Shown here one piece after another: positions 4,071 through 27,121 of a DNA stretch of 64,000 nt. This stretch comes from a virus. Below the pieces are notes generated by a model that searched no databases, was not told the DNA's origin, and was given only the letters and a program-made list of their open reading frames with translations. How positions within the stretch are numbered: the stretch's first letter is position 1; every line of letters starts with the position of its first letter. Position numbers and translations under genes: made by a program. The stretch covers positions 58,060-122,059 of the IMG/VR virus record IMGVR_UViG_3300021425_004462, one strand, 5' to 3'.

Positions 4071-5143
4071 GACAATAATTTTTTATATTTCTCTATCACG
4101 AATGGATTGTTAGGTGAGAATTTATTAAGTATAGTTTCAGATTGTTTCTTGTATTCTTCTAAATTTTTATCGTGAAAAGTTAACGCTAGCCTTAGTGCTT
4201 CAGCGCCTTTTTTCGTATCATATTCAGGGTAGAAATAACCAGCTGATTTTATATATTCAGAGTTATGCACTAGGGGGATATTGAAATATAATGCTTCAAG
4301 ATAAGTATAATTCAGCCCGTTTAATAATTGATTTGATAGTGATACTGAAATTTTGTTCGCAAATAAATTAGTTACTCTTTGCCTGTGATTGAAATTCACT
4401 TTTCCACCTTTTTGTATATCTAGTTGCCACATCATTCTTTTGAAGAAATTAGCTTCTTTTAGTTTTGATGTGCAATAAACATTTAATGATTCAAATAAAC
4501 TTTTATCTTCCGAGTAAAGTTCTTCTGCTATCATGATTGAAGGTAGGCAGTGTTTTGTTGTGTTTAAGTTTGGTTCAAAAATTCCTATATGCTTGGGCTT
4601 ATCTTTTGAATAAAAGCAACTTTTACCGGCTTTATTCCATATCTTTTCATGCATTTTCATATATTGCGAACTCCATATATATGGAAGTTCGAGGACTTTT
4701 TCATTTTTGTAATAAGTTCTGAAATAATTGAAGGAAAATTTGTAATGAGGTGATACCCAATTTTCGTCAACTCTATATGGGATTAAGGGGGATGTTGTAT
4801 TCCAGCTTGATTGTTCTATGTCAGCTAATAATCTATTTCCATAGTGGACATGAATGTTCCTGCATGCAGGTTTAAGTTCTTTTATCTTATCTATTATTGA
4901 ATGCTTTAGCATCCATGTAGTTTGTAGGACAGCATATAGATCATCTATATAATCTAGTATTTCATGCTCTTCTAATATTAATATATCTGTAGGTGGGTCT
5001 ACGCAATCATCTATTTTGTGATTTACTGCAATTATAGGCTCGAAGCCTATGTTTTGTAAAAGTTCAGCCAGGAATACAATGTTTTGTTGCAAGCCATTGC
5101 TGAAAATTCCGTTTTTGTAATTCGCGGTCAATAATATTCTCAT
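4067..5143 (-). CDS. DUF2827-like glycosyltransferase, copy A
   Basis: A 358-residue paralogue of the next gene. It has the FSNGLQQNIVFLAELLQ opening, HIGIFEPNLNTTKHCLPSIMIAE in the middle and YTYLEALYFNIPLVHNSEY near the C-terminus, all typical of a GT-B-like DUF2827 transferase. It is the first gene of the leftmost cluster and is directly preceded by the GTGTAAAT late-type motif at 5151-5158, which begins 15 bases before the ATG with no Shine-Dalgarno site between. This places the whole 1-5143 glycosyltransferase group under late, probably leaderless, expression together with the fibre genes. It ends in an ATGA overlap with copy B. Tandem duplication followed by divergence is the likely origin of the pair. 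Confidence 0.72.
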   Translation of the reverse strand: MRILLTANYKNGIFSNGLQQNIVFLAELLQNIGFEPIIAVNHKIDDCVDPPTDILILEEHEILDYIDDLYAVLQTTWMLKHSIIDKIKELKPACRNIHVHYGNRLLADIEQSSWNTTSPLIPYRVDENWVSPHYKFSFNYFRTYYKNEKVLELPYIWSSQYMKMHEKIWNKAGKSCFYSKDKPKHIGIFEPNLNTTKHCLPSIMIAEELYSEDKSLFESLNVYCTSKLKEANFFKRMMWQLDIQKGGKVNFNHRQRVTNLFANKISVSLSNQLLNGLNYTYLEALYFNIPLVHNSEYIKSAGYFYPEYDTKKGAEALRLALTFHDKNLEEYKKQSETILNKFSPNNPFVIEKYKKLLS

Positions 5144-8124: not shown

Positions 8125-8129
8125 TATTT

Positions 8130-9403: not shown

Positions 9404-9408
9404 AAAAA

Positions 9409-14082: not shown

Positions 14083-14183
14083 TCTTATTTTATATATTTA
14101 TTAAATTAAGATATATAGTATATCCTATTGAATAACAATGCACAATTTTTTGCACGTCACTAATTCAATTTTTTGAATAAGAC

Positions 14184-14212
14184 TTGACAAAAATCTAATT
14201 TAAGTATAAGAT
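14184..14212 (+). promoter_or_regulatory. early sigma70-like promoter, leaderless, divergent
   Basis: A perfect TTGACA (14184-14189), a 17-base spacer and TAAGAT (14207-14212) are followed by 7 bases and the ATG at 14220. The geometry is identical to the opposite promoter at 14054-14082, 100 bases away. Together they drive the two early operons in opposite directions. TATAAG at 14205 is an alternative -10 with a 15-base spacer. Confidence 0.75.
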
Positions 14213-14219
14213 CTATCGA

Positions 14220-14543
14220 ATGAAAAAATTCATACAGATACCATTAGCTATTCAAGAGGATATTATTTCGGGCAAATTAATTGGTAACGATCTAGTTGTT
14301 TACTCCTACCTCGTTGATAAGGCCGGGCACGGCAAACCTATATATTTTTCTAACAACAAGATAGCAGGAGAACTAGGCGGAATGTCTTACGGTAAAATAT
14401 CGGCAAGCCTAAGCAGACTATATAAGGCTAAACATATTTTAAGAAAAAAAACAGCAGGAAATACAATGACACAGTTAAAGACTGTTGTTATAAATTCCAA
14501 AAATATCATGATAAAGGGGAGGCAGCATGAAGATATCTGTTAG
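14220..14543 (+). CDS. winged-helix DNA-binding protein
   Basis: A 107-residue basic protein. Residues about 20-75 read as a winged helix: LVVYSYLVDKAGHGKPIYFSNNKIAGELGGMSYGKISASLSRLYKAKHI, a pattern shared with HTH domains of replication initiators and phage regulators (first helix, then recognition helix SYGKISASLSRLY, then a beta wing around LRKKTAG). It is the first gene of the early plus-strand operon and begins exactly where the promoter predicts transcription to start. A leading-gene DNA-binding protein next to a divergent promoter pair is well placed to control both promoters; this is inference. The end overlaps the next gene by 17 bases. Confidence 0.65.
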   Translation: MKKFIQIPLAIQEDIISGKLIGNDLVVYSYLVDKAGHGKPIYFSNNKIAGELGGMSYGKISASLSRLYKAKHILRKKTAGNTMTQLKTVVINSKNIMIKGRQHEDIC

Positions 14544-15480
14544 GATGGAGGGTGGCTTAGGTGACCACTTCGCCGCTAATAGATTCATTCCTGCAATTAA
14601 GGAATATTACCCTGGGTGCGAAATAGACCTATGGTCAGACACGGAAGGTAGCCCGATACAGTCAGATATACTTAAGGAAATGTGGCCAGACCATTTCAAT
14701 AATGTTTTTGTTTTGGAAAAAAAGAAACATAAAAAATTTCGAATAAAATCATCAAATTTCCCAGAAGAAGATTATAGAGGGTCAATTAAAAATGTATCAC
14801 CTAATGATATGAAATTAATGGAAGGGGCTTATGATAAGTTTTACGACCTACATATTGACTCCTTAGATTGGTTGAACCATGACTACGATTGGTTTAAGTA
14901 TTTTAATATCTTTCCAAAACCCACTACCAACTTAACCGAAAATATAAAGTTACCTTTTGACAAATTCATTTTAGCGCACCTTTATGCGAGAGACGGTGCA
15001 GATTCAAATATGGAAGATTGGTATATTAAGAGATTAATTAACGATATAACAAAAGATTTCAACTTAATAATTCTTTACGATAGTCATTCCAAACATAAAT
15101 ACGAAGATTTTCTGGAATCAAAAAACCCAAAATTACATTTAGTGCACGCAGATCTAAGGCAAATATTTTATCTGTCCAGTAAATGTACAGCTATGTTCGG
15201 TATTGATTCAGGGATACGATATATTCCATATCATTTTGGTAAACCCACATTCACTTTCTCAAAATATTGTCAAAAATACGGAACGGTTCAATACTCTTAT
15301 TTAATTAGATGGTTATTTAATGAAAAGTACGTTTTTCCTTTACATTATGACATTAGTAGCGCAAGTCAAATAATAAAAAATTGCTTACGCAATCCTGCGT
15401 ATAGATTATACCCTTTCTTACTAGATGATATAGAGCGTCTGGTTGCCCAGAGAGACATTACGGAATATATTACAGAATGA
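14527..15480 (+). CDS. GT9-like (heptosyltransferase-type) glycosyltransferase
   Basis: A 317-residue GT-B protein. The start MKISVRMEGGLGDHFAANRFIPAIKEYYPGC matches the GGLGD opening of ADP-heptose:LPS heptosyltransferases (GT9). The second half shows the expected lobe pattern, with FILAHLYARDGADSNMEDW, LVHADLRQIFYLSSKC and AMFGIDSGIRYIPYHFGKPTF, the last like the conserved 'D-S-G-x-x-H' donor-site block but with R-Y replacing the usual histidine region. The start is fixed by GGGGAGG four bases upstream, one of the few clear ribosome sites here. It begins inside the winged-helix gene and overlaps the following gene by ATGA. Probably adds a sugar to a host LPS-type core or phage-specific glycan. 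Confidence 0.72.
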   Translation: MKISVRMEGGLGDHFAANRFIPAIKEYYPGCEIDLWSDTEGSPIQSDILKEMWPDHFNNVFVLEKKKHKKFRIKSSNFPEEDYRGSIKNVSPNDMKLMEGAYDKFYDLHIDSLDWLNHDYDWFKYFNIFPKPTTNLTENIKLPFDKFILAHLYARDGADSNMEDWYIKRLINDITKDFNLIILYDSHSKHKYEDFLESKNPKLHLVHADLRQIFYLSSKCTAMFGIDSGIRYIPYHFGKPTFTFSKYCQKYGTVQYSYLIRWLFNEKYVFPLHYDISSASQIIKNCLRNPAYRLYPFLLDDIERLVAQRDITEYITE

Positions 15481-16265
15481 AAGTAGCATTATGGTTTAGT
15501 GGGAAATTAGGAGACTGGGAAGAATGTTTAAAGTCGATAACAGAAAATATTATCTGGCCACTAAAGCCAGATATTTTCGTTACAACTTGGGACGATCAAC
15601 CCTCTTACGACTTCTGCCAATACTATAAACCAGTAAAACGTCAAATATTGAACTTCGAAAAAGCAATGGCATCGCTAGCGCCAACAGACAAGCTCCCATA
15701 CCAGCCAAACAAAGGATTAATACCTATGTTAGTAGGAATTAAAGCCTCTAATACTATATTCCAAAACTACGCTTTATTAAAAAAAATCAATTACGATTTA
15801 GTAATCAGGATAAGACCAGACATACAAGTATTAGAACAAATAAAACCTCATGAAATAAAAGATTGTTTAAAAAATAAACATATTAGACTACCACTATTTG
15901 AGAGTACCAATATATACAATCATGAAGAAGAAATCAAAAAACAATTTAGCTTCAGTTTTGTATATGACAAAGCTTCTCTGCCAAATCAAATAAATGATCA
16001 GCTAGCTATTGGACACCCCGACCAAATGAATAAGTACGCAAATTGTTTATCAAGCGTAGCAACTGCAATAAAAATTATGTGGAATGAAGGTTACCCTGAA
16101 TATATGATCAAAGTGCCAGAGTCAGTAATAACAATGTGCCTAAACTTACAGCAATGTAAATACAAGCAATTAACAGGAACAAATCCGTTTGGTAATATTA
16201 ATACAATCCTGTGTAAAAATGGCAAAAAATGGAGAAACCAAGGACACAACTCAATTTCAGTTTAA
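15477..16265 (+). CDS. glycosyltransferase-like protein, family A (first copy)
   Basis: A 262-residue protein. The N-terminus MKVALWFSGKLGDWEECLKSI, followed by KPDIFVTTWDDQ, fits a family of viral and bacterial GT-A-like proteins that open with 'ALxxSGxxR/GxxE-x-C' and an 'F-x-TW' strand. The stretch YDLVIRIRPDIQVLEQI supplies the R-x-R-x-D motif typical of the nucleotide-sugar site in that group. The tail is basic (GKKWRNQGHN). A second, diverged member is the 18817 gene. It overlaps both neighbours (ATGA, TAATG), as expected in a translationally coupled operon. No membrane segment. Function is assigned at fold level only; sugar and acceptor are unknown. Confidence 0.55.
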   Translation: MKVALWFSGKLGDWEECLKSITENIIWPLKPDIFVTTWDDQPSYDFCQYYKPVKRQILNFEKAMASLAPTDKLPYQPNKGLIPMLVGIKASNTIFQNYALLKKINYDLVIRIRPDIQVLEQIKPHEIKDCLKNKHIRLPLFESTNIYNHEEEIKKQFSFSFVYDKASLPNQINDQLAIGHPDQMNKYANCLSSVATAIKIMWNEGYPEYMIKVPESVITMCLNLQQCKYKQLTGTNPFGNINTILCKNGKKWRNQGHNSISV

Positions 16266-17221
16266 TGAAAATTTTCTTTCCAGATATCCACATAACTTTA
16301 ACAAAAAATTTAAGCAAATCCTTGCAACAGCTAGGTCACCAAATAGTACTACCCTCAAAAGATTACCGCATAACAGAGTTACCTCCTCAAAATTGGGTAT
16401 GGAACACTTCCCACTCAAAAGAATCTATTAAAAAATTCGACCTAGCGTCTAATTCTATTTTCGTAGATAAAGAAGAGCTTTTCGATATAAAACCTGACGT
16501 TATATTTGTTAGTGCATTCGAAAATCAATTCGAAGTACTAAATATTATATGGCCTGAAGCTAAAAAATGGGGAGCAAAACTAGCATTTTACAGCGGAAAC
16601 GATTATTGGGACACGGCTTATCCGTGGGAGATAATACAAAACTATATGCCCGCAGACCAACTAGCAGCAAAGCTTTGCGCTAAACACAAAAAACATTTTT
16701 TTCATTACAAACCCTGGATTGATTATGAAATGTTTTCCTTTGATGGGGTTTCTGACGGCAAAAAGATAGGTACATATATATGTGATTACAAAAATAACTT
16801 CCCGGAAGACTACGAGTGCTATACTCAAACCATTCGAGCTCATAATGCAGAATATATTTTATGCGAAAAAGAAACAAAACAAAGAACTTCAGAGATAATG
16901 AACGAAACAATCTCTACCTTACATATAAAAAGACTAGAAGGTTACGGTTTTGCTATTATCGAAAGCATGGCAAAAGGTAGACCGGTCTTTTTCTGGGAAC
17001 CTTTAACTGAGGGCAAAAGCTACCTTCAATGGTTAGAGCTTGGGGTTACCGGCTTTACATTTAGAGATTTAGGGGATTACATTTCTCAACAAAATTTCTT
17101 AATAACAGAAACTGAATTTAGACATGAAGTACAGAATAAGTGTGCCGAGAGGATAAGAGATATAATAAATAATGAAGAAGAGAATTTAAAATTAGACAAT
17201 TTCTTAAATAATCTATTATGA
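16265..17221 (+). CDS. GT4-like glycosyltransferase
   Basis: A 318-residue GT-B protein. The ATG at 16265 is chosen because it shares a base with the preceding stop (TAATG) and gives the normal MKIFFPDIHITLTKNLSKSL opening. An upstream in-frame ATG at 16229 would only add residues inside the previous gene. The second lobe has IKRLEGYGFAIIESMAKGRPVFFWEP, the classic E-x7-E donor-binding region of GT4 (E of LEGYGF and E of IIES). The first lobe shows DVIFVSAFENQ and KLAFYSGNDYW. It ends in an ATGA overlap with the GT25 gene. Likely a cytoplasmic transferase acting on a membrane-linked or soluble acceptor in the same pathway. Confidence 0.75.
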   Translation: MKIFFPDIHITLTKNLSKSLQQLGHQIVLPSKDYRITELPPQNWVWNTSHSKESIKKFDLASNSIFVDKEELFDIKPDVIFVSAFENQFEVLNIIWPEAKKWGAKLAFYSGNDYWDTAYPWEIIQNYMPADQLAAKLCAKHKKHFFHYKPWIDYEMFSFDGVSDGKKIGTYICDYKNNFPEDYECYTQTIRAHNAEYILCEKETKQRTSEIMNETISTLHIKRLEGYGFAIIESMAKGRPVFFWEPLTEGKSYLQWLELGVTGFTFRDLGDYISQQNFLITETEFRHEVQNKCAERIRDIINNEEENLKLDNFLNNLL

Positions 17222-17916
17222 AACTGAATGATTTATTTGATGCGGTTTATTATATTAACCTTGACTCAAGAACAGATAGAGATGAAGAGTTTTGGGAATT
17301 AAATAATAATTTTTTATGTAAAGAACGGACAATTAGAATATCTGCGTTTGATGCGAGAAACACAAATGTAGCAGACGGGGTCTTACCTCTAATGCGTGCA
17401 AGAGCGGCGCATTCAGTAAGCTATTCTAAACCTTTCCGCCATGCAATTGAGAATAACTTTAAAAAAATATTAGTTCTCGAAGATGACGCTGAACCAATGA
17501 TCAAGGACCCAGAAGAAATGTATTCCTTGATTAAAAATTGCCAACAAACAGATTATGATATATTATTCCTTGGAGGGACAGTCCAATCTCAATTAACAAA
17601 AGAAAATGAATTTCTGTACAAGGTTAAAAATAATGTACTAACCACACATGCAATATCTTTTTGTGATAATAATAACCTATTTAAAACAATAGCCCCATTA
17701 GGTAATAATTATGAAGCTACATTTGAGTACCTAACTAGACAAAGAAATTGTTTTGCGACAGACCTACTTACTTCAGAACTTACCTTAAAATACAGAAGTT
17801 TTTTTCCCAAGAGCCTTATCTACGGCCAATACGAAAGCTTTTCAGATATAGATGGAAAGAATGCATCTTACAATAACGATATGATAAATAGATTCGATAA
17901 ATTTACCGCATCATGA
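17218..17916 (+). CDS. GT25-like glycosyltransferase
   Basis: A 232-residue protein with the GT25 signature. YYINLDSRTDRDEEF near residues 11-25 is the opening motif, HSVSYSKPFRHAIENNFKKILVLEDDAEP gives the S-H-x-x-x-W-like helix and the EDD metal motif, and YDILFLGGTVQ is the next strand. GT25 enzymes are LPS galactosyl- or glucosyltransferases. It is related to the N-terminal domain of the late polyprotein at 1067-2971 but is a stand-alone, shorter form, so the phage has an early and a late GT25. Both ends overlap neighbours by ATGA. Confidence 0.78.
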   Translation: MKLNDLFDAVYYINLDSRTDRDEEFWELNNNFLCKERTIRISAFDARNTNVADGVLPLMRARAAHSVSYSKPFRHAIENNFKKILVLEDDAEPMIKDPEEMYSLIKNCQQTDYDILFLGGTVQSQLTKENEFLYKVKNNVLTTHAISFCDNNNLFKTIAPLGNNYEATFEYLTRQRNCFATDLLTSELTLKYRSFFPKSLIYGQYESFSDIDGKNASYNNDMINRFDKFTAS

Positions 17917-18812
17917 AAAAAACTAACTTCGGAGTATTAGTATACCAAAATCAATATTTACCTGAATGTTCTTCGATTAATGTTGGAGACTACATACAAT
18001 CATTAGCGGCGTTAAATATATATAAAAAAATTATAGAAGAAAAACTTAATGTTTCATTCGAAATAGATGAATTCACTAATTTAGTTTTAGAGAATAATAT
18101 AGACGGATTTAATTTTATTTTCATCAAAAGAGATAACTTACATGAACAATCCCAATATCAAGGATTAGATAATATCATCACAATCATGAATGGATGGTGG
18201 ATGTGGCCATTTAATAAAAACAAAGAATTAAGTTTTGAGATACCCAAAAATTTAAAACCCATATTTACTTCGTTCCATATTTACGATAATAACTTACTTA
18301 ATGAAAAAAATATTAAAACTTTCGAAAGGTTTCAACCGATAGGCTGTAGGGACATAGATACATTAAATAAATTAAAAAGTAAAAACATAGATTGCTTCTT
18401 TTCTGGATGCCTAACCACAACAATAGATTTTTATGACTGGGAAGGTCAGAATTCAGATTCAGTACTACTAGTTGATTATAACAAAAATAATTTAAATGTA
18501 AATGAATCCAGACTGACACATCATACCCCAGAAATTAAGGAAGATTTTAAAAAAGGATTTAAACTAGGGCTTAATCTACTTAAAAAATATAGTTTATGCA
18601 AAAAAGTATACACCTCAAGAATACATTGCTATCTTCCGTGTCTAGCTATGGGCGTACCCGTTGAATTTAATTACGGAGATAATTCTAAGCTTAATACCTG
18701 GGGTACGGGCAATGAAAGATTCAACGGTTTAAGGGAACTTGGGGCAGAACAAGATAAACTGAATAAAATTCAACTAGGATTCGATCAAATCATGAATCAC
18801 ATAAAAATATAA
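17913..18812 (+). CDS. polysaccharide pyruvyl transferase family protein
   Basis: A 299-residue protein of the WcaK/CsaB type. The family landmarks are SSINVGDYIQSLAAL (residues about 20-34; the 'N-x-GD' opening), RFQPIGCRDIDTLNKLKSKNIDCFFSGCLTTTI (the 'GxRD-x-x-T-x-x-L' and 'D-P/G' blocks) and VYTSRIHCYLPCLAMGVPVEF (the 'S-x-x-H-x-x-x-x-A-x-x-x-G-x-P' block). It would transfer pyruvate from phosphoenolpyruvate to a sugar, giving an acidic ketal group on a surface polymer. Together with the pyruvyl domain at 1067-2971 it makes two in this window, one early and one late. It starts with an ATGA overlap. Confidence 0.75.
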   Translation: MKKTNFGVLVYQNQYLPECSSINVGDYIQSLAALNIYKKIIEEKLNVSFEIDEFTNLVLENNIDGFNFIFIKRDNLHEQSQYQGLDNIITIMNGWWMWPFNKNKELSFEIPKNLKPIFTSFHIYDNNLLNEKNIKTFERFQPIGCRDIDTLNKLKSKNIDCFFSGCLTTTIDFYDWEGQNSDSVLLVDYNKNNLNVNESRLTHHTPEIKEDFKKGFKLGLNLLKKYSLCKKVYTSRIHCYLPCLAMGVPVEFNYGDNSKLNTWGTGNERFNGLRELGAEQDKLNKIQLGFDQIMNHIKI

Positions 18813-18816
18813 TACA

Positions 18817-19620
18817 GTGAAAAGGATAGCTATATGCTTTAGGGGAAAATGTTCCGACGAAAATATACATTGGGCTACAGGCACGCTTAGAAAAACAGAT
18901 TACAAAAAAACCTTAATTTCTATAAGAAATAATTTAATAAATACTAACCCAAATTATAATTTCGACATATACCTACATGGCTGGATATCTGAAGAAGCTG
19001 ACTCAAACAAGATAGAATCAGATTTTAATGCAAAATTAAGCAAACTTGACAAACAGATAGACTTTTCTCCGTATTACGAAAAAATTAAAAACTACAGAGA
19101 GATATTGCAATCTAGATTTAGCCATTTACATCAGAAAAATCAATATTCCTACAATGATATAAAATTTTTCGATTATTTTAATAATATATTCTCATATGCA
19201 TACAGTATATCTAATGCGGTAAAACTAATAGATCAACCTAAGAATTACGAATTAATAATAAATACTAGATACGACATTAATTTAATAGAAGCCATAAATT
19301 TAAATTCACTAGATAAAAATAAAACTTATACTGACAACACAGGATTAAACCACAGCCCTCTATTTTATGGTGATTTCATACATATTTCGAAACCAGAGAA
19401 GAGTGTTTTATGGGCAAATTTTTTCAATTTTTTAAGCGAAGAGATCTTCTTTAAAAAAGATTTTGAACAATGGGCGAGAAGCTTTAAATCAAAAAATATT
19501 AACGGAAAAACCGACCACGGTATATATTCACCTCAAATGATATACGCTAATTTTTCCCAGACACACACACCACACAGAGATGTTGTGCCAAAAATAAACG
19601 CATCACTTTTTAGATATTAA
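18817..19620 (+). CDS. glycosyltransferase-like protein, family A (second copy)
   Basis: A 267-residue protein that starts with GTG at 18817; no in-frame ATG lies near the conserved N-terminus MKRIAICFRGKCSDENIHWATG. The pattern 'IAICFRG ... YKKTLISIRNNLI ... FDIYLHGW' matches the family seen at 15477, and YELIINTRYDINLIEAI supplies the R-x-D strand of its proposed donor site. Divergence between the two copies is high, so they probably differ in sugar or linkage. It sits 4 bases after the pyruvyl transferase gene and 2 bases before the HAD-nucleotidyltransferase gene, with no visible ribosome site, and is likely translated by coupling. Confidence 0.55.
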   Translation: MKRIAICFRGKCSDENIHWATGTLRKTDYKKTLISIRNNLINTNPNYNFDIYLHGWISEEADSNKIESDFNAKLSKLDKQIDFSPYYEKIKNYREILQSRFSHLHQKNQYSYNDIKFFDYFNNIFSYAYSISNAVKLIDQPKNYELIINTRYDINLIEAINLNSLDKNKTYTDNTGLNHSPLFYGDFIHISKPEKSVLWANFFNFLSEEIFFKKDFEQWARSFKSKNINGKTDHGIYSPQMIYANFSQTHTPHRDVVPKINASLFRY

Positions 19621-19622
19621 TA

Positions 19623-21044
19623 ATGATAAAAGCGGTACTATTTGACTTAGATGGAGTTCTCGTTGACTCAAGAGAAATGCATTACCTAGCACTAAATAAA
19701 GCTTTAGAATATATAGATCCAAAATTTATAATCAAAAGAGAAGAACATCTATCTACTTTTGACGGTTTACCAACAAAAAGTAAACTCAATAAATTAACAG
19801 AAACAAAAGGTTTACCAAAAGATCTTTACAATGAAGTATGGAAGCTTAAGCAAAAATTTACAGTTGAAGCAATAAACGAGCAGTACTCTGTAGATGAGAG
19901 ATTGTGTGGTATACTTAAAAATTTAAAGGAAAAAGGGATCAAAATGTGCGTTTGCTCTAATTCTATCAGAGAAACTACAAAAATGATACTTTTAAGGAAG
20001 GGGCTTATAGAGTATATTGAATTTTTGATAACGAATGAAGACGTAAAGAATCCAAAGCCTAACCCTGAGATGTATTTAAGGGCAATGATACGACTTGGAT
20101 TATCACCTAAAGAATGTGTTATAGTAGAGGATTCTCACATTGGAAGAAAGGCAGCTATGCTATCAGGAGCAAGTCTTTGCGCTGTAATAAATCCAAATGA
20201 TGTCGAATTATCTAAAATAGAATATATTATACAAAAAGCAAATGATAAATCAAAACTCAACCCCAAATGGCAAGGAGGAAAAATGAACGTACTTATACCA
20301 ATGGCTGGAGCGGGATCCAGATTCGAAAAAGCTGGATATACATTCCCTAAACCATTAATCGAAGTTAGAGGTCAACCAATGATACAGGCAGTCGTCAATA
20401 ATATAAATATTGACGCAAAACATATCTTTATAGTGCAAAAGGAACACTTTAAAAAGTACAACCTAAAAGAAACTTTAAATGCAATATCACCAGGTTGTGA
20501 TATCGTAACAGTAGAAGGAGTAACTGAAGGCGCAGCTTGCACAACCTTATTAGCTAAAGATTTAATAAATAACAACGAACCTTTATTAATAGCAAACTCA
20601 GATCAATTTGTAGAATGGGATAGTAATCAATTCATGTACTCTATGGTGGGAGACACTATTGACGGAGGTATACTAACATTCTACTCTACGCACCCCAAAT
20701 GGAGCTACGCAAAATTAAATGAAGACGGTTTTGTTTCGGAGGTTCAAGAGAAGAAACCTATAAGTGATAAAGCTACAGTAGGTATTTACTACTGGACGAA
20801 AGGCTCTGATTACGTCAAATACGCAGAGCAAATGATTGAAAATAATACAAGGGTGAACAACGAGTTCTACGTATGCCCTGTTTACAATGAAGCTATCAAA
20901 GACAACAAGAAAATTAAAATTTTTGATATTCCGAAGATGTGGGGCTTAGGAACACCAGAAGACCTAAATTATTTTTTAGAGCACCAAGGAAAAGAAGATT
21001 CTGATCCAGATATGTGGGCTAACACCCCAAACCCTAATGAATAA
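19623..21044 (+). CDS. HAD phosphatase - sugar nucleotidyltransferase fusion
   Basis: A 473-residue two-domain enzyme. Residues 1-205 are a HAD hydrolase of the beta-phosphoglucomutase type: FDLDGVLVDS with D8 and D10, CSNS, KNPKPNPE and VEDSHIG complete the four motifs. Residues about 221-460 are a nucleotidyltransferase: MNVLIPMAGAGSRFEKAGYTFPKPLIEV has the G-x-G-x-R and lysine signature, with ANSDQFVEWD as the metal strand and GLGTPEDL near the end. Phosphosugar trimming or isomerisation followed by NDP-sugar formation would supply donors to the surrounding transferases. The second domain begins at an in-frame ATG preceded by AAGGAGG, so it may also be made alone. Confidence 0.82.
   Translation: MIKAVLFDLDGVLVDSREMHYLALNKALEYIDPKFIIKREEHLSTFDGLPTKSKLNKLTETKGLPKDLYNEVWKLKQKFTVEAINEQYSVDERLCGILKNLKEKGIKMCVCSNSIRETTKMILLRKGLIEYIEFLITNEDVKNPKPNPEMYLRAMIRLGLSPKECVIVEDSHIGRKAAMLSGASLCAVINPNDVELSKIEYIIQKANDKSKLNPKWQGGKMNVLIPMAGAGSRFEKAGYTFPKPLIEVRGQPMIQAVVNNINIDAKHIFIVQKEHFKKYNLKETLNAISPGCDIVTVEGVTEGAACTTLLAKDLINNNEPLLIANSDQFVEWDSNQFMYSMVGDTIDGGILTFYSTHPKWSYAKLNEDGFVSEVQEKKPISDKATVGIYYWTKGSDYVKYAEQMIENNTRVNNEFYVCPVYNEAIKDNKKIKIFDIPKMWGLGTPEDLNYFLEHQGKEDSDPDMWANTPNPNE
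20272..20285 (+). promoter_or_regulatory. internal ribosome-binding site and start inside the fusion gene
   Basis: AAGGAGG at 20272-20278, four bases, then the in-frame ATG at 20283, exactly at the start of the nucleotidyltransferase domain (residue 221). It is the strongest Shine-Dalgarno site seen in this operon. It may be a relic of two separate genes or a working internal start. Confidence 0.6.
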
Positions 21045-21363
21045 GTTTAATTTAAAAGATTTTACAAGAGGCTGGTTCATTGGCAACTTCAACCCTTCTC
21101 TAATTAAAACTAACGATGTTGAAGTTGGAGTTAAAGAATATAAAGCTGGAGATTATGAAGAATTTCATCACCACAAGATTTCAACAGAAATCACTTGCAT
21201 TACAAAAGGAGAAGTAGAAATGAATGGAGTGAGGTATAAAGAGGGAGATATTATTGAAATAAAACCCTTAGAAGGTACAGACTTCAAGGCGATTACAGAC
21301 AGTCAAAATGTTGTCATAAAACTTCCTGGGGCAAATGATGACAAATATCTAGGAAAAGCATGA
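21037..21363 (+). CDS. cupin-fold sugar-metabolism-type protein
   Basis: A 108-residue single-domain cupin. The first cupin motif is visible as YKAGDYEEFHHHKISTEITCITKGEVEMNG, with the three-histidine cluster and a glutamate placed to bind a metal ion. The second, weaker motif follows at YKEGDIIEIKPLEGTDFKAI. Cupins of this size in sugar operons are isomerases, epimerase-like proteins or sensors; the exact reaction cannot be told. It overlaps the nucleotidyltransferase gene by 8 bases and the next gene by ATGA, so it belongs to the same pathway. Lack of a C-terminal extension argues against a full RmlC-type epimerase (about 180 residues). Confidence 0.7.
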   Translation: MNKFNLKDFTRGWFIGNFNPSLIKTNDVEVGVKEYKAGDYEEFHHHKISTEITCITKGEVEMNGVRYKEGDIIEIKPLEGTDFKAITDSQNVVIKLPGANDDKYLGKA

Positions 21364-21782
21364 TACTAGTATCTCATAGAGGAAATATATCTGGACCAAA
21401 TCCAGAAAAAGAAAATCATCCAGACTACATAAAAGAAGCTCTTTCGCAAGGATTTGATGTAGAGGTAGATATATGGGGAGATAAAGAATTATGGCTTGGT
21501 CACGATAAACCTCAATACAAATGCTCAGTTAGTTTCCTTATTAACAATTACCAAAAGCTATGGATCCATTGCAAAAACTTAATAGCTATAGATATATTGT
21601 CTGAATTTAAAGTTTTAAATTACTTCTGGCATCAAAACGATGACTATACATTAACCTCTAAAAATTTTATATGGACATACCCAGGTAAACACGTATGCAA
21701 TAAAAGCGTCTTAGTTGTAGATGACGCAAGAGAATATGCTGGCCCGATTTGCTTTGGTTTATGCTCTGACTATATTAGGTGA
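21360..21782 (+). CDS. GDPD/PI-PLC-like phosphodiesterase-fold protein
   Basis: A 140-residue protein resembling a trimmed glycerophosphodiester phosphodiesterase barrel. MILVSHRGNISGPNPEKENHPDYIKEAL contains the HRGN-x-x-GP-x-P-x-x-EN opening with its catalytic histidine, and GFDVEVDIWGDKELWLGHD contains E-x-D and the second histidine. LWIHCKN continues the barrel strands. It is about half the usual 240-residue length, so some of the barrel is missing or the fold is reduced. It may act on a phosphodiester-linked glycan unit made by this operon, for example glycerol-phosphate or sugar-phosphate. It starts at ATGA and ends in a GTGA overlap. Confidence 0.6.
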   Translation: MILVSHRGNISGPNPEKENHPDYIKEALSQGFDVEVDIWGDKELWLGHDKPQYKCSVSFLINNYQKLWIHCKNLIAIDILSEFKVLNYFWHQNDDYTLTSKNFIWTYPGKHVCNKSVLVVDDAREYAGPICFGLCSDYIR

Positions 21783-22645
21783 ATATTAGCGATATATTTT
21801 CAAAAAATTATTTCAAACATAACTACCACTTAAGCCAGGAGCAAAGATTTCTTCACAGCTTCCTTGAAAGGTACTTATTGAGAATGGAGCGGTACATTGA
21901 AACCGTATCTATAATTATTCAAGGAAAATTAAACAAGAGGTCTATTGATACCATTCCAGAATACTTAAAGTATGGGGAAGTTATTATCAGCTGCTGGGAC
22001 AATGATGATTTATCTATGCTTGATAAATATAAAGATAAAGTTAAAATCATAATAAATAAATATTCGAACGCAAAAACAAAACAAAAAAAAACAGGAAGTC
22101 AAGCTCCCTGGATCTTTCAAAATTTAACAACACTAAACGGCCTTAATGCCGCAAGCGGATACTTATGCATTAAGTTAAGATCTGATGAAAGTTATCCTAT
22201 CCTAGACCCATTAATAAATAAATTTAAAAATAATAGAGACACAAAAGATCCAAGTACGAATTTGTACAAAGATTATAAAATAATCACATCAAACATTTAC
22301 TTTAGGCACGACAGAGAGAACAAATTTCACCCATCAGATCACATAATAGCAGGAACAAAAAGTCGAATGCTAGAGTCCTTTAAGTTATCAAACTCCTATT
22401 GTTATAAACCTCACACAAAATTCCCAGAGCAATTAATAGCTCACGCAATAATTAACAGCTATTTCGACCCCGTTAATAAAAGAAAAGATAGAGTAAAAAA
22501 CGAAAATTCTAAAGAGTTAATGAAAAAACATTTTGACATAATAAGAATAAAAGATTTACCTAATCATATATGGACTTCAAGCTACAGAAAGTATGATCCA
22601 TTATACAGCGAAGAAGACTGGTGTCATGATATAAATTCCATATAA
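21779..22645 (+). CDS. WavE-like LPS core glycosyltransferase
   Basis: A 288-residue protein. From residue about 40 it follows the WavE (Vibrio LPS core) pattern: VSIIIQGKLNKRSIDTIPEYLKYGEVIISCWDNDDLSML, then a gap, GYLCIKLRSDESYPI (the K-L-R-x-D strand) and HPSDHIIAGTKSRMLESFKL near the end. The start is a GTG at 21779 overlapping the previous stop (GTGA); an ATG at 21884, just before the conserved part, is a possible shorter start. It is the last gene of the early glycan operon. A hairpin-bearing promoter region follows at once. Probably a cytoplasmic sugar transferase acting on an LPS-like acceptor. Confidence 0.68.
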   Translation: MNISDIFSKNYFKHNYHLSQEQRFLHSFLERYLLRMERYIETVSIIIQGKLNKRSIDTIPEYLKYGEVIISCWDNDDLSMLDKYKDKVKIIINKYSNAKTKQKKTGSQAPWIFQNLTTLNGLNAASGYLCIKLRSDESYPILDPLINKFKNNRDTKDPSTNLYKDYKIITSNIYFRHDRENKFHPSDHIIAGTKSRMLESFKLSNSYCYKPHTKFPEQLIAHAIINSYFDPVNKRKDRVKNENSKELMKKHFDIIRIKDLPNHIWTSSYRKYDPLYSEEDWCHDINSI

Positions 22646-22652
22646 ATAATAG

Positions 22653-22680
22653 TTGAGAAAATAAATACAGGACATATAAT
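22653..22680 (+). promoter_or_regulatory. third leaderless sigma70-like promoter
   Basis: TTGAGA (22653-22658), 16 bases and a perfect TATAAT (22675-22680) are followed by 8 bases and the ATG at 22689. The predicted start is at or within 1-2 bases of the ATG, as in the two promoters near 14.1 kb. The -10 box lies inside an inverted repeat. Confidence 0.68.
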
Positions 22681-22687
22681 CCTGTAT
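22665..22687. promoter_or_regulatory. inverted repeat over the -10 box, probable operator
   Basis: ATACAGGA (22665-22672), 7 bases, TCCTGTAT (22680-22687): a perfect 8-bp inverted repeat covering the -10 box and ending one base before the ATG. The position suits a repressor site. There is no T tract, so it is not a terminator. Confidence 0.6.
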
Positions 22688-22688
22688 C

Positions 22689-23249
22689 ATGAGTATTTCA
22701 CTTTATAAACCAAATAGCAAAAACACAGGGTGTGCTTTTAATTTTAAAATCGGAGTAAATAAGTCTAAAGAACCTGTAATTTACGCAAGCGCTATCCAGC
22801 AGTATAGCTGGGACGATTCAAAGAAAACCGGAAACTTTTCAGGAAACGGGACTGATCCAGATAAAAAAATAAACTTAAAATTCACAGAGTTTGAAATAGG
22901 TGGAATAATTAGCGCTTTTAAAAACAGAAATGAATTCTCTACATTTCACGCGTTCGAAGAGAATAAGACGTCAATCAAATGCACCCCATGGGATAAAAAA
23001 AGTAAAGTAAAACAAGGAGATAAAGAAACCTGGGTGACTATACCTGCATTCGGAATTAATGTTACGCGAAACGGTAATCAAATTTTCAGAATACCCATTG
23101 AACCTGGAGAAGTTGAAAATTTAATGGAATTTTTAAAATTTTATCTATCAGAACTATATAAACATAGAAGAAAAGAAGAGATTAAAAGACTCAAAGAATC
23201 CCAATCACAAAACACTTCATCAGGTAATAGCGGCGCAGCCCCTTTTTAA
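22689..23249 (+). CDS. putative ssDNA-binding phage protein
   Basis: A 186-residue protein of a phage family I do not recognise by name. It is beta-rich (GCAFNFKIG, PVIYASAIQQYSWDD, KINLKFTEFEIGGIISAF, STFHAFEENKTSIKCTPW) and has a long C-terminal helix (NLMEFLKFYLSELYKHRRKEEIKRL) and a flexible tail ending SGAAPF. The fold order (sheet, then helix, then disordered tail ending in PF) recalls single-strand DNA-binding proteins of the PC4/Whirly kind and the SSB tip, but no motif proves it. It leads the second early operon from the 22653 promoter and its stop overlaps the next ATG (TAATG). The nearby 26300 gene also looks like DNA metabolism. Confidence 0.45.
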   Translation: MSISLYKPNSKNTGCAFNFKIGVNKSKEPVIYASAIQQYSWDDSKKTGNFSGNGTDPDKKINLKFTEFEIGGIISAFKNRNEFSTFHAFEENKTSIKCTPWDKKSKVKQGDKETWVTIPAFGINVTRNGNQIFRIPIEPGEVENLMEFLKFYLSELYKHRRKEEIKRLKESQSQNTSSGNSGAAPF

Positions 23250-25153
23250 TGAAGAAAAAAATCTTAATACATAGTAATCATTGTAAAGCGTATACGGGTT
23301 TTGGTAAAAATGCTAAAAACATTCTACTCCATTTACATAAAACAGGTAAATATGAAATAGTAGAATTTTCAAACGGCATTAAATGGGGAGACCCTTCTTT
23401 AAGTTTATTACCATGGAAAGCTCAAGGTTCGCTACCAAACGACCCCTCTATAATTAAAAAAATAAATCAAGATCAAGCCTTATACAGAAACGCTGGTTAT
23501 GGCGGGCAAACTATAGACAAAATTATAGAAGAAGAGAAACCAGATCTTTATTTAGGGATTGAAGATATTTGGGCCTTTTCTGGTTATACAGACAAAAAAT
23601 GGTGGAATAAAATAAATTGCGCAATCTGGACTACCCTAGATAGCCTACCAATTTTACCCGAAGCAGTTAGCGCCGCTCCTAAAATAAAAAATTATTTCAC
23701 TTGGTCTTCTTTCGCATCTAAAGCTTTAAACAAACTAGGGTATGATCATGTAAAAACCTTACATGGAGCAATAGATTGTAAAAATTTTTACAAAATTAAA
23801 GATGAAAAAAAATTAAATCTTAGGAAAAAATTCAATATAAGCGACAAAGATTTCGTAATTGGTTTTGTATTCAGGAATCAACTAAGAAAATCTGTACCAA
23901 ACTTATTAGAAGGTTATAAAATTTTCTGCAAAGAAAACCCTGACTGTTCCGCAAAACTTCTATTGCATACTCACTGGAAAGAAGGTTGGGATATAACTTC
24001 CTTAATTAAAGAAAAAGGCATTAACCCTAAAAACATTTTAACAACCTATATCTGCTCTCATTGTAAAAATTTTGAAATAAAACCTTACGAAGAAGAGGGC
24101 AAGGATTGTCGACTTTGTGGTGCAGAAAAATCACAGGTAACTCCAAACACAAAATTAGGAGTTACAGAGTCTCAACTTAATGAAATATACAATATCATGG
24201 ATGTTTACTGCCATCCATTTACTAGCGGAGGTCAAGAAATACCAATACAAGAAGCTAAATTAACAGAGCTTGTTACCCTAGTAACAAATTATAGTTGCGG
24301 AGAAGACTGCTGTACAGAAGAAAGCGGAGGCTTACCATTAAATTGGTCTGAATACAGAGAACCTGGAACTCAATTTATTAAAGCCAGTACAAGCGCAAAA
24401 AGCATAGCAAATCAACTAAAAAAAGTTTTAAAAATGAAGCCCGCAAAACTAAAAGAGTTAGGGCAAAAAGCTAGAAACTTTGTTATAAATAATTATAGCA
24501 CTGAAGTTATAGGAAAAAAACTTGAAGATTTAATAGATGGCATGCCTAAAGTAGATTGGGATTTTGATTTCAAGCCTGTAGAAAAAAACCCAGACTATAA
24601 CCCCCCAGAAATTAAAGATGATGGAGATTTCGTAAAAGATCTATACAAAAATATTCTTCAACTCGAGGTCGGAGAATCCGATGAAGGTTATCTCCACTGG
24701 ATTAAAAGACTTTCCTCAGATATGGATAGAGACTCCGTGTTAGCTTATTTTAAAAATGTAGCTAAAAAAGAAAACAAAAAAAACGAAAAGATAGATTTTA
24801 GAGACATACTGGATAAAGATGACGAAGGAAAAAGATTGCTTTTCTCTATACCAGAAAGTATTGGAGATATATACATGTGCACATCTTTATTAAAAAATAT
24901 AAAAAAATTATACCCCAAATATAATATTTATTTTGCAACAAAACCAGAATATTTTGAAATTTTAGAAGGTAACCCTTATATACATAAAGTTATACCTTAT
25001 AGTAACAGTCTAGACAGTCTTCCTGCCATGGAGGGACAAGGCAACCATAAAGGTTATTTCGAAATAGCTTTCCTACCCTTTATCGGCACACAAAGAATGT
25101 TAAATTACATACATAATGGAAAGGATAAAATACAATTTAATATATGCACTTAA
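23249..25153 (+). CDS. GT4 with inserted zinc ribbon, DUF4214 segment and GT9 N-lobe
   Basis: A 634-residue mosaic. Residues 1-450 are a GT4-like GT-B enzyme, including FVIGFVFRNQLRKSVPNLLEGYKIF at the inter-lobe hinge and TSGGQEIPIQEAKLTELVTLV as the donor block. Inside it, near 270-290, CSHC and CRLC form a zinc-ribbon-like insert. Residues about 460-510 (FVKDLYKNILQLEVGESDEG, then WIKRLSSDMDRDSVLAYF) resemble DUF4214. From about 530, RLLFSIPESIGDIYMCTSLLKNIKKL begins a GT9 heptosyltransferase N-lobe, which stops at the point where the C-lobe should start. The next gene supplies that lobe and overlaps by 10 bases. Likely builds the same glycan as the neighbouring operon. Confidence 0.7.
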   Translation: MKKKILIHSNHCKAYTGFGKNAKNILLHLHKTGKYEIVEFSNGIKWGDPSLSLLPWKAQGSLPNDPSIIKKINQDQALYRNAGYGGQTIDKIIEEEKPDLYLGIEDIWAFSGYTDKKWWNKINCAIWTTLDSLPILPEAVSAAPKIKNYFTWSSFASKALNKLGYDHVKTLHGAIDCKNFYKIKDEKKLNLRKKFNISDKDFVIGFVFRNQLRKSVPNLLEGYKIFCKENPDCSAKLLLHTHWKEGWDITSLIKEKGINPKNILTTYICSHCKNFEIKPYEEEGKDCRLCGAEKSQVTPNTKLGVTESQLNEIYNIMDVYCHPFTSGGQEIPIQEAKLTELVTLVTNYSCGEDCCTEESGGLPLNWSEYREPGTQFIKASTSAKSIANQLKKVLKMKPAKLKELGQKARNFVINNYSTEVIGKKLEDLIDGMPKVDWDFDFKPVEKNPDYNPPEIKDDGDFVKDLYKNILQLEVGESDEGYLHWIKRLSSDMDRDSVLAYFKNVAKKENKKNEKIDFRDILDKDDEGKRLLFSIPESIGDIYMCTSLLKNIKKLYPKYNIYFATKPEYFEILEGNPYIHKVIPYSNSLDSLPAMEGQGNHKGYFEIAFLPFIGTQRMLNYIHNGKDKIQFNICT

Positions 25154-26298
25154 TAGAACAATATGCACTTTCGTGTGGAGTTAAAATAGATAAGCCACAT
25201 ATTGAAGAATCATTCTTTCCAGTACCTTTTGAAAAATACATAACCATTCATGCTAGTAGCGGCATGGACTCCAAAAACTATGATTACTATTCAGACGTCA
25301 TAGAAATGATTACTCCATATTTAGCAGAAAAAGATATTCATATTATACAGATTGGAGCCAAAGACGACATAAAATTAGATGGCTGTGAACATTTAAACGG
25401 AACAACTACAATAAGACAGACATCTTATATAATTAAAAATAGTTTATTACATTTTGGCAACGACTCATTCTCAACTCATGTAGCTTCAGGTTTTAATAAA
25501 AAAATAGTTTGCCTATATAGTATATTATACAAAGAATGTTGCGGCCCATATTGGGGCGATAAAAACAATCAGATCTTAATAGAGTCACACAGAAACGGAC
25601 TGAAACCGTCTTTTTCGAACAAAGAATCTCCCAAAAGTATTAATTTAATAAATCCAGAAACTATAGCCTCCAGCATACTAAATTTACTAGAGATAGATAA
25701 TGAATTAGAAAAAATTAATACAATATACATAGGTAAGGAATACGCTTCATCATCAGTTTCTGTTGTTCCAAACTATGTAATGCCATCAAATTTTGCGCAA
25801 GGACAACCAATGAATATATGGGGCCACGAGTTCTTCGATGAGGGAAATATAGTCCAATGGGCATATGGAAGAAAATGTAATATTTTTTTAAAACAGAACA
25901 TGTCAGTAAAATACCTAGACACAATAAGGCAAAACATTAATCAAATCAATTATTTCATAAATGATAATACTGACGCGAAATACTTTGAAGTTTTAGAGAG
26001 AGGAGGTATTAATTTTAAACTAGTTTGTGAAGATGCAAATAAAATCAATGAGTACAGAACGAAATTTTTCGACTGGAACATTCACCTAGTAGAAAAAAAA
26101 CAAAAAAAAGACCTTGACATAATAGACAAAATCTGCGATAATACTCGCTATAAAAGCTCCCTACAAATACTATCAAATGGAAAAATGTATAATAGCAAAG
26201 CAGCCTGGAGGCAAGATATCACAGAAAGTGATAAAATTATAGATTGCGATGAATTCTGGGAGCAAGTAGAACACTTCAAACTTTACAACAAAAATTAA
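25144..26298 (+). CDS. GT9 C-lobe with a second glycosyltransferase-like domain
   Basis: A 384-residue protein. Residues 1-170 form the donor-binding lobe of a GT9 enzyme: FEKYITIHASSGMDSKNYDYY, then IIQIGAKDDIKLDGCEHLNGTTTIRQTSYIIKNSLLHFGNDSFSTHVAS (the conserved G-N-D-S-x-x-x-H-x-A block) and KKIVCLYS. It has no N-lobe of its own; that half is the end of the preceding gene, in the frame reached by a -1 shift. No canonical slippery heptamer lies at the overlap, so translational coupling into a two-chain enzyme is likelier than frameshifting. The C-terminal 200 residues (NIWGHEFFDEGNIVQWAYGRK and beyond) are not recognised. Confidence 0.65.
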   Translation: MHLIEQYALSCGVKIDKPHIEESFFPVPFEKYITIHASSGMDSKNYDYYSDVIEMITPYLAEKDIHIIQIGAKDDIKLDGCEHLNGTTTIRQTSYIIKNSLLHFGNDSFSTHVASGFNKKIVCLYSILYKECCGPYWGDKNNQILIESHRNGLKPSFSNKESPKSINLINPETIASSILNLLEIDNELEKINTIYIGKEYASSSVSVVPNYVMPSNFAQGQPMNIWGHEFFDEGNIVQWAYGRKCNIFLKQNMSVKYLDTIRQNINQINYFINDNTDAKYFEVLERGGINFKLVCEDANKINEYRTKFFDWNIHLVEKKQKKDLDIIDKICDNTRYKSSLQILSNGKMYNSKAAWRQDITESDKIIDCDEFWEQVEHFKLYNKN

Positions 26299-26299: not shown

Positions 26300-27121
26300 A
26301 TGTCAACAAAAACAACCGCAGATAATTCAGTAACATACGAAGCGCAAACTTCAATTAAAACTTCTAAAAAATCGATACCAGAAAAATATTTAAAAGGTCC
26401 AGGTCGTTTTTGTAGAGATGGATTTGGACTATTAAATGAAGTATCATACGAATTTGATGAAGATGGCTCAGTGAATTGGAGATCTATGATCAAAGATGAA
26501 CATTTATTCCCAAATAAATCATGGTTCGATTTACGCAAAAAAGATGTACCGAGAACAATCGACGGACTAAAAGATCATCAATTGCTTATTAAATTGTCGG
26601 GAATCAAAGAGCTTGCCAAACTGCGAGGGTTCTCGGACGTATCTTATGAAGTTGTTAAATGTCAATCAGATCACGTTGCAGTTATCTGTAGAGTAACTTT
26701 TTTACCTAATTACGAAACAGGAGGTAAAGCTGTAACCTTTCAAGATATGGCGAATGCAACTTTAAACAATACAAGTAGTTTTGCAACAAAGTTTTTAGAG
26801 ACTATAGCCTGCAACCGCGCATTTGTACGCTGTGTTAGAAACTTTCTTAACGTTCATATCGTTGGAGATGATGAAATAGACAAATCTTCTCTTAATAATA
26901 ATACACAAGTTAATGTATCCGCAACACTGACACCCTATTCAATGATAGAAAATTTAGCTAAAGATAAATTAAATTGTGGAAACTTTGAAGAATTTAAAGT
27001 TGTTCTTCGTGACTGGTGGGCCGCAGGTAAATATAAAAACGACGAAGTTAAAAACTGGAACGACTATTCAGATATTCCCGCAACACAAGCAAGAATATTA
27101 ATGAAAGTAATAAACGAATAA
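26300..27121 (+). CDS. possible Rad52-like ssDNA annealing protein
   Basis: A 273-residue protein. The central stretch, LAKLRGFSDVSYEVVKCQSDHVAVICRVTFLP, then VTFQDMANATLNN, then ETIACNRAFVRCVRNFLNVHIVGDDEID, has the strand-strand-helix order and the basic helix (R-A-x-x-R-x-x-R-x-x-L) seen in Rad52-type annealing proteins. The match is by pattern only. The N-terminus is polar and probably disordered (MSTKTTADNSVTYEAQTS); a small C-terminal helical part follows residue 200. It starts one base after the preceding gene and ends 3 bases from the convergent tail gene. Together with the putative ssDNA-binding protein at 22689 and the early promoter, a recombination role is plausible. Another phage DNA-binding function cannot be excluded. 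Confidence 0.4.
   Translation: MSTKTTADNSVTYEAQTSIKTSKKSIPEKYLKGPGRFCRDGFGLLNEVSYEFDEDGSVNWRSMIKDEHLFPNKSWFDLRKKDVPRTIDGLKDHQLLIKLSGIKELAKLRGFSDVSYEVVKCQSDHVAVICRVTFLPNYETGGKAVTFQDMANATLNNTSSFATKFLETIACNRAFVRCVRNFLNVHIVGDDEIDKSSLNNNTQVNVSATLTPYSMIENLAKDKLNCGNFEEFKVVLRDWWAAGKYKNDEVKNWNDYSDIPATQARILMKVINE

What the first reader, a model, noticed from the sequence alone, without database searches (positions are those of the whole stretch)
14527..26298. A phage-encoded early glycan pathway of more than a dozen genes
One early operon carries GT9, two family-A GTs, GT4, GT25, a pyruvyl transferase, HAD-nucleotidyltransferase, cupin, GDPD-like and WavE-like proteins, followed by a second with GT4 and split GT9. 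Another five GT modules sit in the late cluster at 1-5143 and one in the replication operon. This supplies donor formation, chain transfer and acidic decoration (pyruvate). Likely roles: remodelling of host LPS to exclude other phages, or masking of phage receptors. Glycosylation of virion or DNA remains possible. Early plus late expression suggests two targets.
Basis: partly seen in the sequence, partly recalled or inferred. Interest (0 to 1): 0.8.

Follow-up and report, generated by a model that had tools for sequence, protein, structure and literature searches.

The report
Phage-borne surface-glycan gene cassette
A large marine phage carries a conserved set of sugar-activating and sugar-transferring genes whose closest cellular counterpart lies in a bacterial surface-polysaccharide locus, so it most likely redecorates the surface of the infected cell; this kind of cargo is already known in marine phages, but its core enzymes (a fused sugar-activating enzyme, a mini-phosphodiesterase and an always-split glycosyltransferase) are unstudied.

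Summary
Observation confirmed, with corrections. 14527-26298 holds 13 intact, tightly packed + strand ORFs; 12 are glycan-related, one (22689-23249) is not. About twenty relatives, one a 184-kb syntenic record, share the backbone, and dN/dS is 0.02-0.11. The cassette has three layers: (i) a core: WavE-like GT, fused HAD-nucleotidyltransferase, 140-aa mini-GDPD, second WavE-like GT; (ii) variable cargo (GT9-like, GT25, pyruvyl transferase, cupin); (iii) a two-gene enzyme, GT4-Zn-ribbon-DUF4214-GT9N plus GT9C, split in all 79 testable loci; relatives in at least 597 virus contigs. The fused HAD-nucleotidyltransferase is in at least 116 virus contigs, including cyanophage isolates. In a Bacteroidota chromosome the same parts occur as separate genes inside a polysaccharide-export locus (GMD, FCL, Wzm/Wzt-like ABC transporter, GDPD, HAD, NTase, cupin, NTase, WavE-like). 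That argues for a cell-surface glycan; absence of base-hydroxymethylating enzymes argues against DNA glycosylation. No polymerase or exporter genes were seen, so the phage probably modifies host glycan rather than building a new one. Superinfection exclusion is plausible but untested; early/late timing is inferred. Published work already proposes this for pelagimyophages. New member of a known kind.

The parts
14083..14219 (.). Divergent regulatory region upstream of the cassette: TTGAC boxes at both ends and two CAATTTTTTG copies; conserved in relatives
   Evidence: alignment of 5 relatives; a generic promoter scan of the region is not above chance, so only the conservation counts
14527..15480 (+). 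GT9-like protein (GGLGD motif only); accessory, in about 10 relatives
   Evidence: no profile hit
15477..16265 (+). WavE1: GT-A fold glycosyltransferase; core
   Evidence: phrog_13607; AF2 pLDDT 85, Foldseek best match alpha-1,3-galactosyltransferase E 8e-7
16229..17221 (+). GT4/GT-B-like glycosyltransferase; accessory
   Evidence: weak NCBIfam hits; 3 relatives plus G002
17218..17916 (+). GT25 family glycosyltransferase; accessory
   Evidence: PF01755 E 2.6e-4; 45% identical gene at the same place in G002
17913..18812 (+). Polysaccharide pyruvyl transferase; accessory, no near relative found in viral contigs or phage records
   Evidence: PF04230 E 5e-8
18817..19620 (+). WavE2: GT of the same PHROG as WavE1; accessory
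   Evidence: phrog_13607 E 5e-13; dN/dS 0.10 against L104
19623..21044 (+). Fused HAD (beta-phosphoglucomutase-like) and sugar nucleotidyltransferase; core
   Evidence: in at least 116 virus contigs
21037..21363 (+). Small cupin; accessory
   Evidence: phrog_24762; 58% identity to a cellular O-antigen-type-locus cupin
21360..21782 (+). 140-aa mini-GDPD phosphodiesterase-like protein; core
   Evidence: phrog_34507; invariant H6 R7 E35 D37 H48 H70 K72; pLDDT 97.5; best fold match 2pz0 GDPD, prob 0.90
21779..22645 (+). WavE3: WavE family glycosyltransferase; core
   Evidence: PF07507 E 1e-7
22689..23249 (+). Conserved unassigned protein (possibly ssDNA-binding, by eye only); fixed partner of the split GT
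   Evidence: 78 of 80 loci; no profile identity
23249..25153 (+). GT4 with inserted CxxC...CxxC zinc-ribbon-like motif, DUF4214, and N-terminal half of a GT9
25144..26298 (+). C-terminal half of the GT9 plus an extra domain, separate ORF overlapping the previous by 10 bases
26300..27121 (+). Conserved unassigned protein (Rad52/Sak-like by eye only); fixed partner of the split GT
   Evidence: 80 of 80 loci; no profile identity
11167..12222 (-). GT4b glycosyltransferase next to the SSB-like and sigma-like genes; conserved in relatives at about 69-74%
   Evidence: phrog_2170
1..1091 (-). Second glycan cluster: GT2 plus RXYLT1/exostosin GT (gene continues outside the window)
1067..2971 (-). GT25 fused to pyruvyl transferase
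2949..4070 (-). DUF2827 protein (GT-like)
   Evidence: PF10933 E 3e-64
4067..5143 (-). DUF2827 protein (GT-like), next to the fibre-type gene 5161-8124
   Evidence: PF10933 E 3e-59

Best explanation
The cassette is a viral version of part of a bacterial surface-polysaccharide (O-antigen/capsule type) locus. Inferred mechanism: the HAD half of 19623 (beta-phosphoglucomutase-like mutase or phosphatase) prepares a sugar phosphate; its nucleotidyltransferase half makes the activated sugar; the cupin and mini-GDPD tailor or recycle an intermediate (their exact step is unknown); the WavE-type, GT4, GT25 and GT9-type transferases add these sugars, together with GDP-fucose made by the GMD/FCL genes elsewhere in the genome, to a glycan that the host already assembles and exports; the pyruvyl transferase adds negative charge. 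The altered surface would probably block adsorption of competing phages and re-adsorption of progeny. Shown: gene content, intactness, purifying selection, GT-A fold of one WavE-like protein (predicted model), conserved catalytic residues, and the same enzyme set in a cellular polysaccharide-export locus. Inferred: host surface as target, exclusion as purpose, expression timing, sugar identity.
For: Same set (GMD, FCL 52% identical, Wzm/KpsM-like permease, Wzt-like ATPase, GDPD, HAD 45%, NTase 41%, cupin 58%, NTase 51%, WavE1-like) in a Bacteroidota chromosome, and GDPD-HAD-NTase-WavE beside a WbuX-type amidotransferase in a second. GMD, FCL and Nudix genes in this record. In 80 diverse virus loci the HAD-NTase is accompanied by GDPD (57), a WavE-type GT (40) and sugar epimerases/dehydratases (34), with GT2, GT4 and a TylF-type methyltransferase; similar clusters in cyanophage isolates. 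Core under strong purifying selection. No clear membrane segments, as expected for cytosolic enzymes relying on a host exporter. Variable middle of the cassette among relatives, as expected for an adsorption arms race.
Against: No experiment; host not identified. Product of HAD-NTase/GDPD unknown. The split GT pair is tied to two unassigned genes and, in some phages, to DNA polymerase III rather than to the glycan core, so it may serve another target. The second cluster lies next to fibre genes, which also fits virion glycosylation. Only 6 of 296 sampled Bacteroidota genomes carry clear homologs, and host-lineage loci were not searched.
Confidence: 0.62

Rival explanations
1. The GTs decorate the phage's own particle, above all the repeat-rich fibre proteins at 5161-10800, to tune receptor binding or hide the virion.
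For: The cluster at 1-5143 directly follows the fibre-type genes, and GT4b (11167) precedes them in the same strand run; the same holds in G002. A mycobacteriophage report proposes capsid glycosylation by its two phage GTs (PMC11256854).
Against: In three relatives (L017, L026, L038) the late cluster is absent while the fibre genes and the core cassette remain. The core module occurs in unrelated phages and has cellular O-antigen-type counterparts.
Confidence: 0.2
2. Some or all GTs glycosylate phage DNA as protection against restriction, with the split GT4/GT9 pair as the best candidate because it is fixed near replication genes and carries a zinc-ribbon-like motif.
For: The block [unassigned gene]-GT4.Zn.DUF4214.GT9N-GT9C-[unassigned gene] is kept in 78-80 of 80 loci, next to DNA polymerase III in some phages; CxxC...CxxC invariant.
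Against: No thymidylate synthase/hydroxymethylase or C5-methyltransferase in 12 records including a 184-kb near-complete relative; no TET/JBP hit, though that control did not ring. The GT9 part points to polysaccharide enzymes. The two neighbours could not be identified by profile.
Confidence: 0.07
3. The cassette changes the host surface for another reason (aggregation, grazing, protection of a long-lived infected cell), not phage exclusion.
For: Marine phages carry many auxiliary genes; this one also has PVC-type DUF1501/PSCyt2 genes.
Against: Nothing in the sequence speaks for it over exclusion.
Confidence: 0.08
4. Non-functional or passenger DNA picked up from hosts.
For: Middle genes vary between relatives.
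Against: All ORFs open, catalytic motifs invariant, dN/dS 0.02-0.11.
Confidence: 0.02

Closest known systems
LPS/O-chain gene sets of pelagimyophages and cyanomyophages (mSystems 2020, PMC7029224)
   Same: Several GTs plus sugar-nucleotide genes, partly near tail-fibre genes; the authors already propose host O-chain modification against co-infection.
   Different: There T4-like myophages with GT8 the commonest family; here a siphovirus-type tail (lambda J-like fibre, long tape measure), a WavE/HAD-NTase/mini-GDPD core and a split GT4/GT9 pair.
Glycan clusters of Synechococcus phages DSL-LC03, S-8S55, S-CAM9, S-PRM1 (Kyanoviridae)
   Same: The fused HAD-NTase is 57-59% identical; GDPD annotated in DSL-LC03, and GTs, epimerase or fucosyltransferase annotated alongside.
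   Different: Other GTs around it; the records state no experimental function there either.
Bacteroidota polysaccharide-export locus (G314:C1:1054000-1072000, locus L126)
   Same: GMD, FCL, GDPD, HAD, NTase, cupin, NTase, WavE-like GT in one run.
   Different: HAD and NTase are separate genes, GDPD is 211 not 140 aa, and the locus has its own Wzm/Wzt-like exporter, which was not seen in the phage.
Temperate-phage seroconversion cassettes (gtrABC, oac; own knowledge)
   Same: Phage genes that would alter the host O-antigen.
   Different: Those use membrane proteins; no clear membrane segment here and a much larger gene set.
PDB 4evw (sugar-nucleotide pyrophosphorylase) and beta-phosphoglucomutase 1lvh
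   Same: Close solved relatives of the two halves of 19623.
   Different: Fused in one chain here; substrate unknown.

Membership tests
Phage-encoded host-surface (LPS/O-antigen) modification cluster | Several co-located GTs in an intact, selected operon | tested here: met
Phage-encoded host-surface (LPS/O-antigen) modification cluster | Sugar-nucleotide synthesis genes in the same phage | tested here: met
   HAD-NTase; GMD, FCL, Nudix
Phage-encoded host-surface (LPS/O-antigen) modification cluster | Homology to a cellular surface-polysaccharide locus | tested here: met
Phage-encoded host-surface (LPS/O-antigen) modification cluster | Changed host surface glycan during infection | not testable with these tools
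   needs LPS/capsule analysis
Temperate seroconversion cassette (gtrABC/oac) | Membrane flippase, bactoprenol GT and membrane O-antigen transferase | tested here: not met
   no clear membrane segment (max KD19 1.63, one borderline protein) and no such Pfam families
DNA-glycosylating phage (T4-like) | Enzyme making hydroxymethylated bases (TS-like hydroxymethylase) | tested here: not met
   PF00303 in 0 of 12 records; this record is incomplete but the 184-kb relative is near complete
DNA-glycosylating phage (TET route) | C5-methyltransferase plus TET/JBP dioxygenase | tested here: inconclusive
   PF00145 0 of 12; PF12851 0 of 12 but its control did not ring
DNA-glycosylating phage | Modified nucleosides in virion DNA | not testable with these tools
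   needs mass spectrometry
Virion-glycosylating phage | GT genes next to structural genes | tested here: met
   for the 1-5143 cluster only; absent in three relatives
Virion-glycosylating phage | Glycan on virion protein | not testable with these tools
   needs mass spectrometry
GDPD (glycerophosphodiester phosphodiesterase) | HRG, ExD and second catalytic His; full TIM barrel of about 240 aa | tested here: inconclusive
   HRG, E35, D37, H48 invariant, best fold match a GDPD but E 0.03 and only 140 aa; profile match to a solved GDPD E 0.0013 over 53 residues
GT9 heptosyltransferase (split pair) | Two Rossmann halves of GT9 | tested here: inconclusive
   C half matches PF01075 (just under cut-off) and 1psw; N half by position and motif only

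The most novel reading that the evidence does not exclude
The GT4-zinc-ribbon-DUF4214-GT9N / GT9C pair is a new two-chain glycosyltransferase that is part of the core (not cargo) of a very large, uncultured group of marine phages, always split at the same inter-domain point and always flanked by the same two unidentified genes, and it acts on a target tied to phage replication (nucleic acid or a replication-linked carrier) rather than on host O-antigen.
Probability: 0.12. Interest if true: 0.75.

Novelty: new member of a known kind. Interest (0 to 1): 0.45.

Why it matters
Marine phages very often carry glycan genes of unknown product. The cellular O-antigen-type counterpart found here turns a vague annotation into a testable pathway (HAD-NTase, GDPD, cupin, WavE-type GT). 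The fused HAD-NTase (at least 116 virus contigs against 1 contig, itself phage-like, in the 84,980-species genome set) and the always-split GT4/GT9 pair (relatives in at least 597 virus contigs) are markers and enzymes worth expressing. If the surface-remodelling reading holds, it explains how these phages compete for one host.

Tried and rejected
Split GT9 as sequencing error or programmed frameshift: rejected; the same split in 79 of 79 testable loci, overlaps of 4-20 bases in most or other ORFs (DUF6165-like or HNH-like by eye) inserted between the halves, no canonical slippery heptamer seen. Fused single-chain version: none found in 80 loci. GT9 identity of 14527: not confirmed. Profile link of WavE1 to WavE3: not found. 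Close viral relatives of the pyruvyl transferase: none by pattern scan or in phage records. Identity of the two flanking genes (ssDNA-binding / Rad52-like by eye): not confirmed by profile. Promoter and terminator scans: not above chance. Rfam: nothing. DNA-modification genes: none found. Host by search of its lineage: not possible with the handles available; the PVC guess rests on DUF1501/PSCyt2 genes. Isolated phage relatives by terminase: only distant (about 24-28% identity). Literature on a HAD-NTase/cupin/GDPD phage module: none found.

Full report
What the window is. It is the last 64,000 bases of a 122,059-base linear virus record. Outside the window the record has a terminase, DNA polymerase III alpha, class I ribonucleotide reductase, a ClpA/B-type AAA protein, DnaB, RecA and, notably, GDP-mannose dehydratase, GDP-fucose synthase and a Nudix hydrolase. 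The tail genes include a lambda-J-like fibre and a 2,140-aa tape measure, so the virion is probably a long-tailed siphovirus. A relative, G002 (184,324 bases), is syntenic over almost the whole record and has the same gene at both ends, so it is probably a complete circular genome; the window's record lacks a stretch of about 60 kb.

Checking the observation. The 13 ORFs at 14527-26298 are real, all on the + strand and tightly packed. Domain calls are confirmed for GT25, pyruvyl transferase, HAD plus nucleotidyltransferase, WavE, GT4 plus DUF4214 and GT9 C-half (GT25 and GT9 slightly under the curated cut-offs), by predicted fold for the WavE-like 15477 (GT-A) and by residues and fold for the GDPD-like protein. 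The 'GT9' label of 14527 is motif only; 16229 is a weak GT4. One ORF, 22689-23249, is not a glycan gene. The cluster at 1-5143 and the GT at 11167 are also confirmed.

Three layers. Comparing about 20 relatives separates the region into: a core kept even in the shortest versions (L017, L026, L038): WavE1, HAD-NTase, mini-GDPD, WavE3; a cargo zone that differs between relatives (GT9-like, GT4-like, GT25, pyruvyl transferase, WavE2, cupin); and the split GT block. The late cluster at 1-5143 is also optional: absent in L017, L026 and L038, present in a related form in G002. Selection is purifying throughout the genes that could be tested (dN/dS 0.02-0.11; some dS values saturated).

The HAD-nucleotidyltransferase. 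It is 58-82% identical across 24 diverse virus loci with every HAD and nucleotidyltransferase motif invariant or nearly so. Its HAD half keeps, at the same numbers, the residues that I recall for beta-phosphoglucomutase (D8, D10, H20, K76, S114, K145, E169, D170; own knowledge for the enzyme side), so a mutase that turns a sugar-6-phosphate into a sugar-1-phosphate for the second half is an attractive but unproven idea. At least 116 virus contigs carry it, cyanophage isolates too. The genome collection (84,980 species) gave one contig of 3.4 kb with the same phage gene order, so it is viral or phage-like. That scan used patterns from one query, so distant cellular forms would be missed; a profile search of 296 Bacteroidota genomes found them as separate, adjacent HAD and NTase genes.

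The cellular counterpart. In locus L126, of a genome in the Bacteroidota phylum sample, the order is RmlA-like, epimerase, GMD, FCL (52% identical to the phage FCL), Wzm/KpsM-like permease, Wzt-like ATPase, GDPD (211 aa), HAD (45%), NTase (41%), cupin (58%), NTase (51%), WavE1-like. L127, a second genome, has a WbuX-type N-acetyl sugar amidotransferase, GT2, WavE3-like, GDPD, HAD, NTase, WavE3-like. This is the strongest evidence on function: the phage core and its GDP-fucose genes correspond to part of an ABC-exported surface polysaccharide locus, with two phage-side changes, a HAD-NTase fusion and a shortened GDPD. No exporter was seen in the phage, so host machinery would have to finish the product.

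The split GT. 23249-25153 is a GT4 with an inserted CxxC...CxxC motif, DUF4214 and (by motif and position) the N-terminal half of a GT9; 25144-26298 is the C-terminal half. The first thought, a frameshift error, fails: 79 of 79 testable loci are split, mostly with short overlaps, twelve with about 300-640 bases of other sequence between the halves (eleven measured gaps of that size plus inserted ORFs in L107, L108 and L110), none fused. At least 597 virus contigs encode a relative. The same two unassigned genes flank it in 78-80 of 80 loci, and in distant phages it stands next to DNA polymerase III. It is therefore core to a large phage group and may have a job different from the HAD-NTase module; this is the most novel reading left open.

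Mechanism and rivals. Best reading: host surface polysaccharide remodelling, probably against other phages (0.62 for the target; the purpose is less sure). Virion glycosylation fits the 1-5143 cluster next to fibre genes (0.20). DNA glycosylation is unlikely (0.07): no hydroxymethylase-type or C5-methyltransferase gene in 12 records; the TET search is uninformative because its control was silent. 'Early' expression is plausible from divergent, conserved TTGAC-bearing promoter-like sequences and neighbouring replication-type genes but is not shown.

Novelty. Marine phage GT sets with the same proposed role are published (PMC7029224), and cyanophage isolates carry the same HAD-NTase module without a stated function. 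The finding is therefore a new member of a known kind, made more useful by the cellular counterpart and by two conserved unstudied enzymes.

Noticed in passing
L003:13926-18057 (record positions 33923-38057, outside the window): Phage-borne DUF1501 and PSCyt2/PSD1 (plus DUF4214) proteins typical of Planctomycetota/Verrucomicrobiota; both conserved at the same place in G002 (53% and 41%) and PSCyt2 relatives in 23 virus loci (up to 96%). Suggests a PVC host and an unstudied auxiliary gene pair.
   Followed up: partly
L003:12806-13885 (record 32803-33885): Type III polyketide synthase (chalcone/stilbene synthase family) in a phage genome; not seen at that place in G002.
   Followed up: no
window 25144-25153: Identical 10-base overlap (13 in some) between the two GT9 halves in about 15 relatives; in other phages other ORFs are inserted at this very point.
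   Followed up: partly
window 8147-10800: Two fibre-type proteins made of near-perfect repeats (SGTLNQTGAFLDSKIESL; ETHRLLSGISGQLSLSND), of variable length between relatives.
   Followed up: no
window 14083-14219: Conserved divergent control region with two copies of CAATTTTTTG, a possible operator.
   Followed up: no
L115:12716-18455 (G002 72.7-78.5 kb): A third glycan cluster in the 184-kb relative (GT25-GT2 fusion, epimerase-like), in the region missing from this record.
   Followed up: partly
L111 (RFXU01000199.1): A contig binned in a Flavobacteriaceae MAG has the phage order DnaD-like, WavE1, HAD-NTase, GDPD, WavE3: likely a phage contig in the bin.
   Followed up: partly
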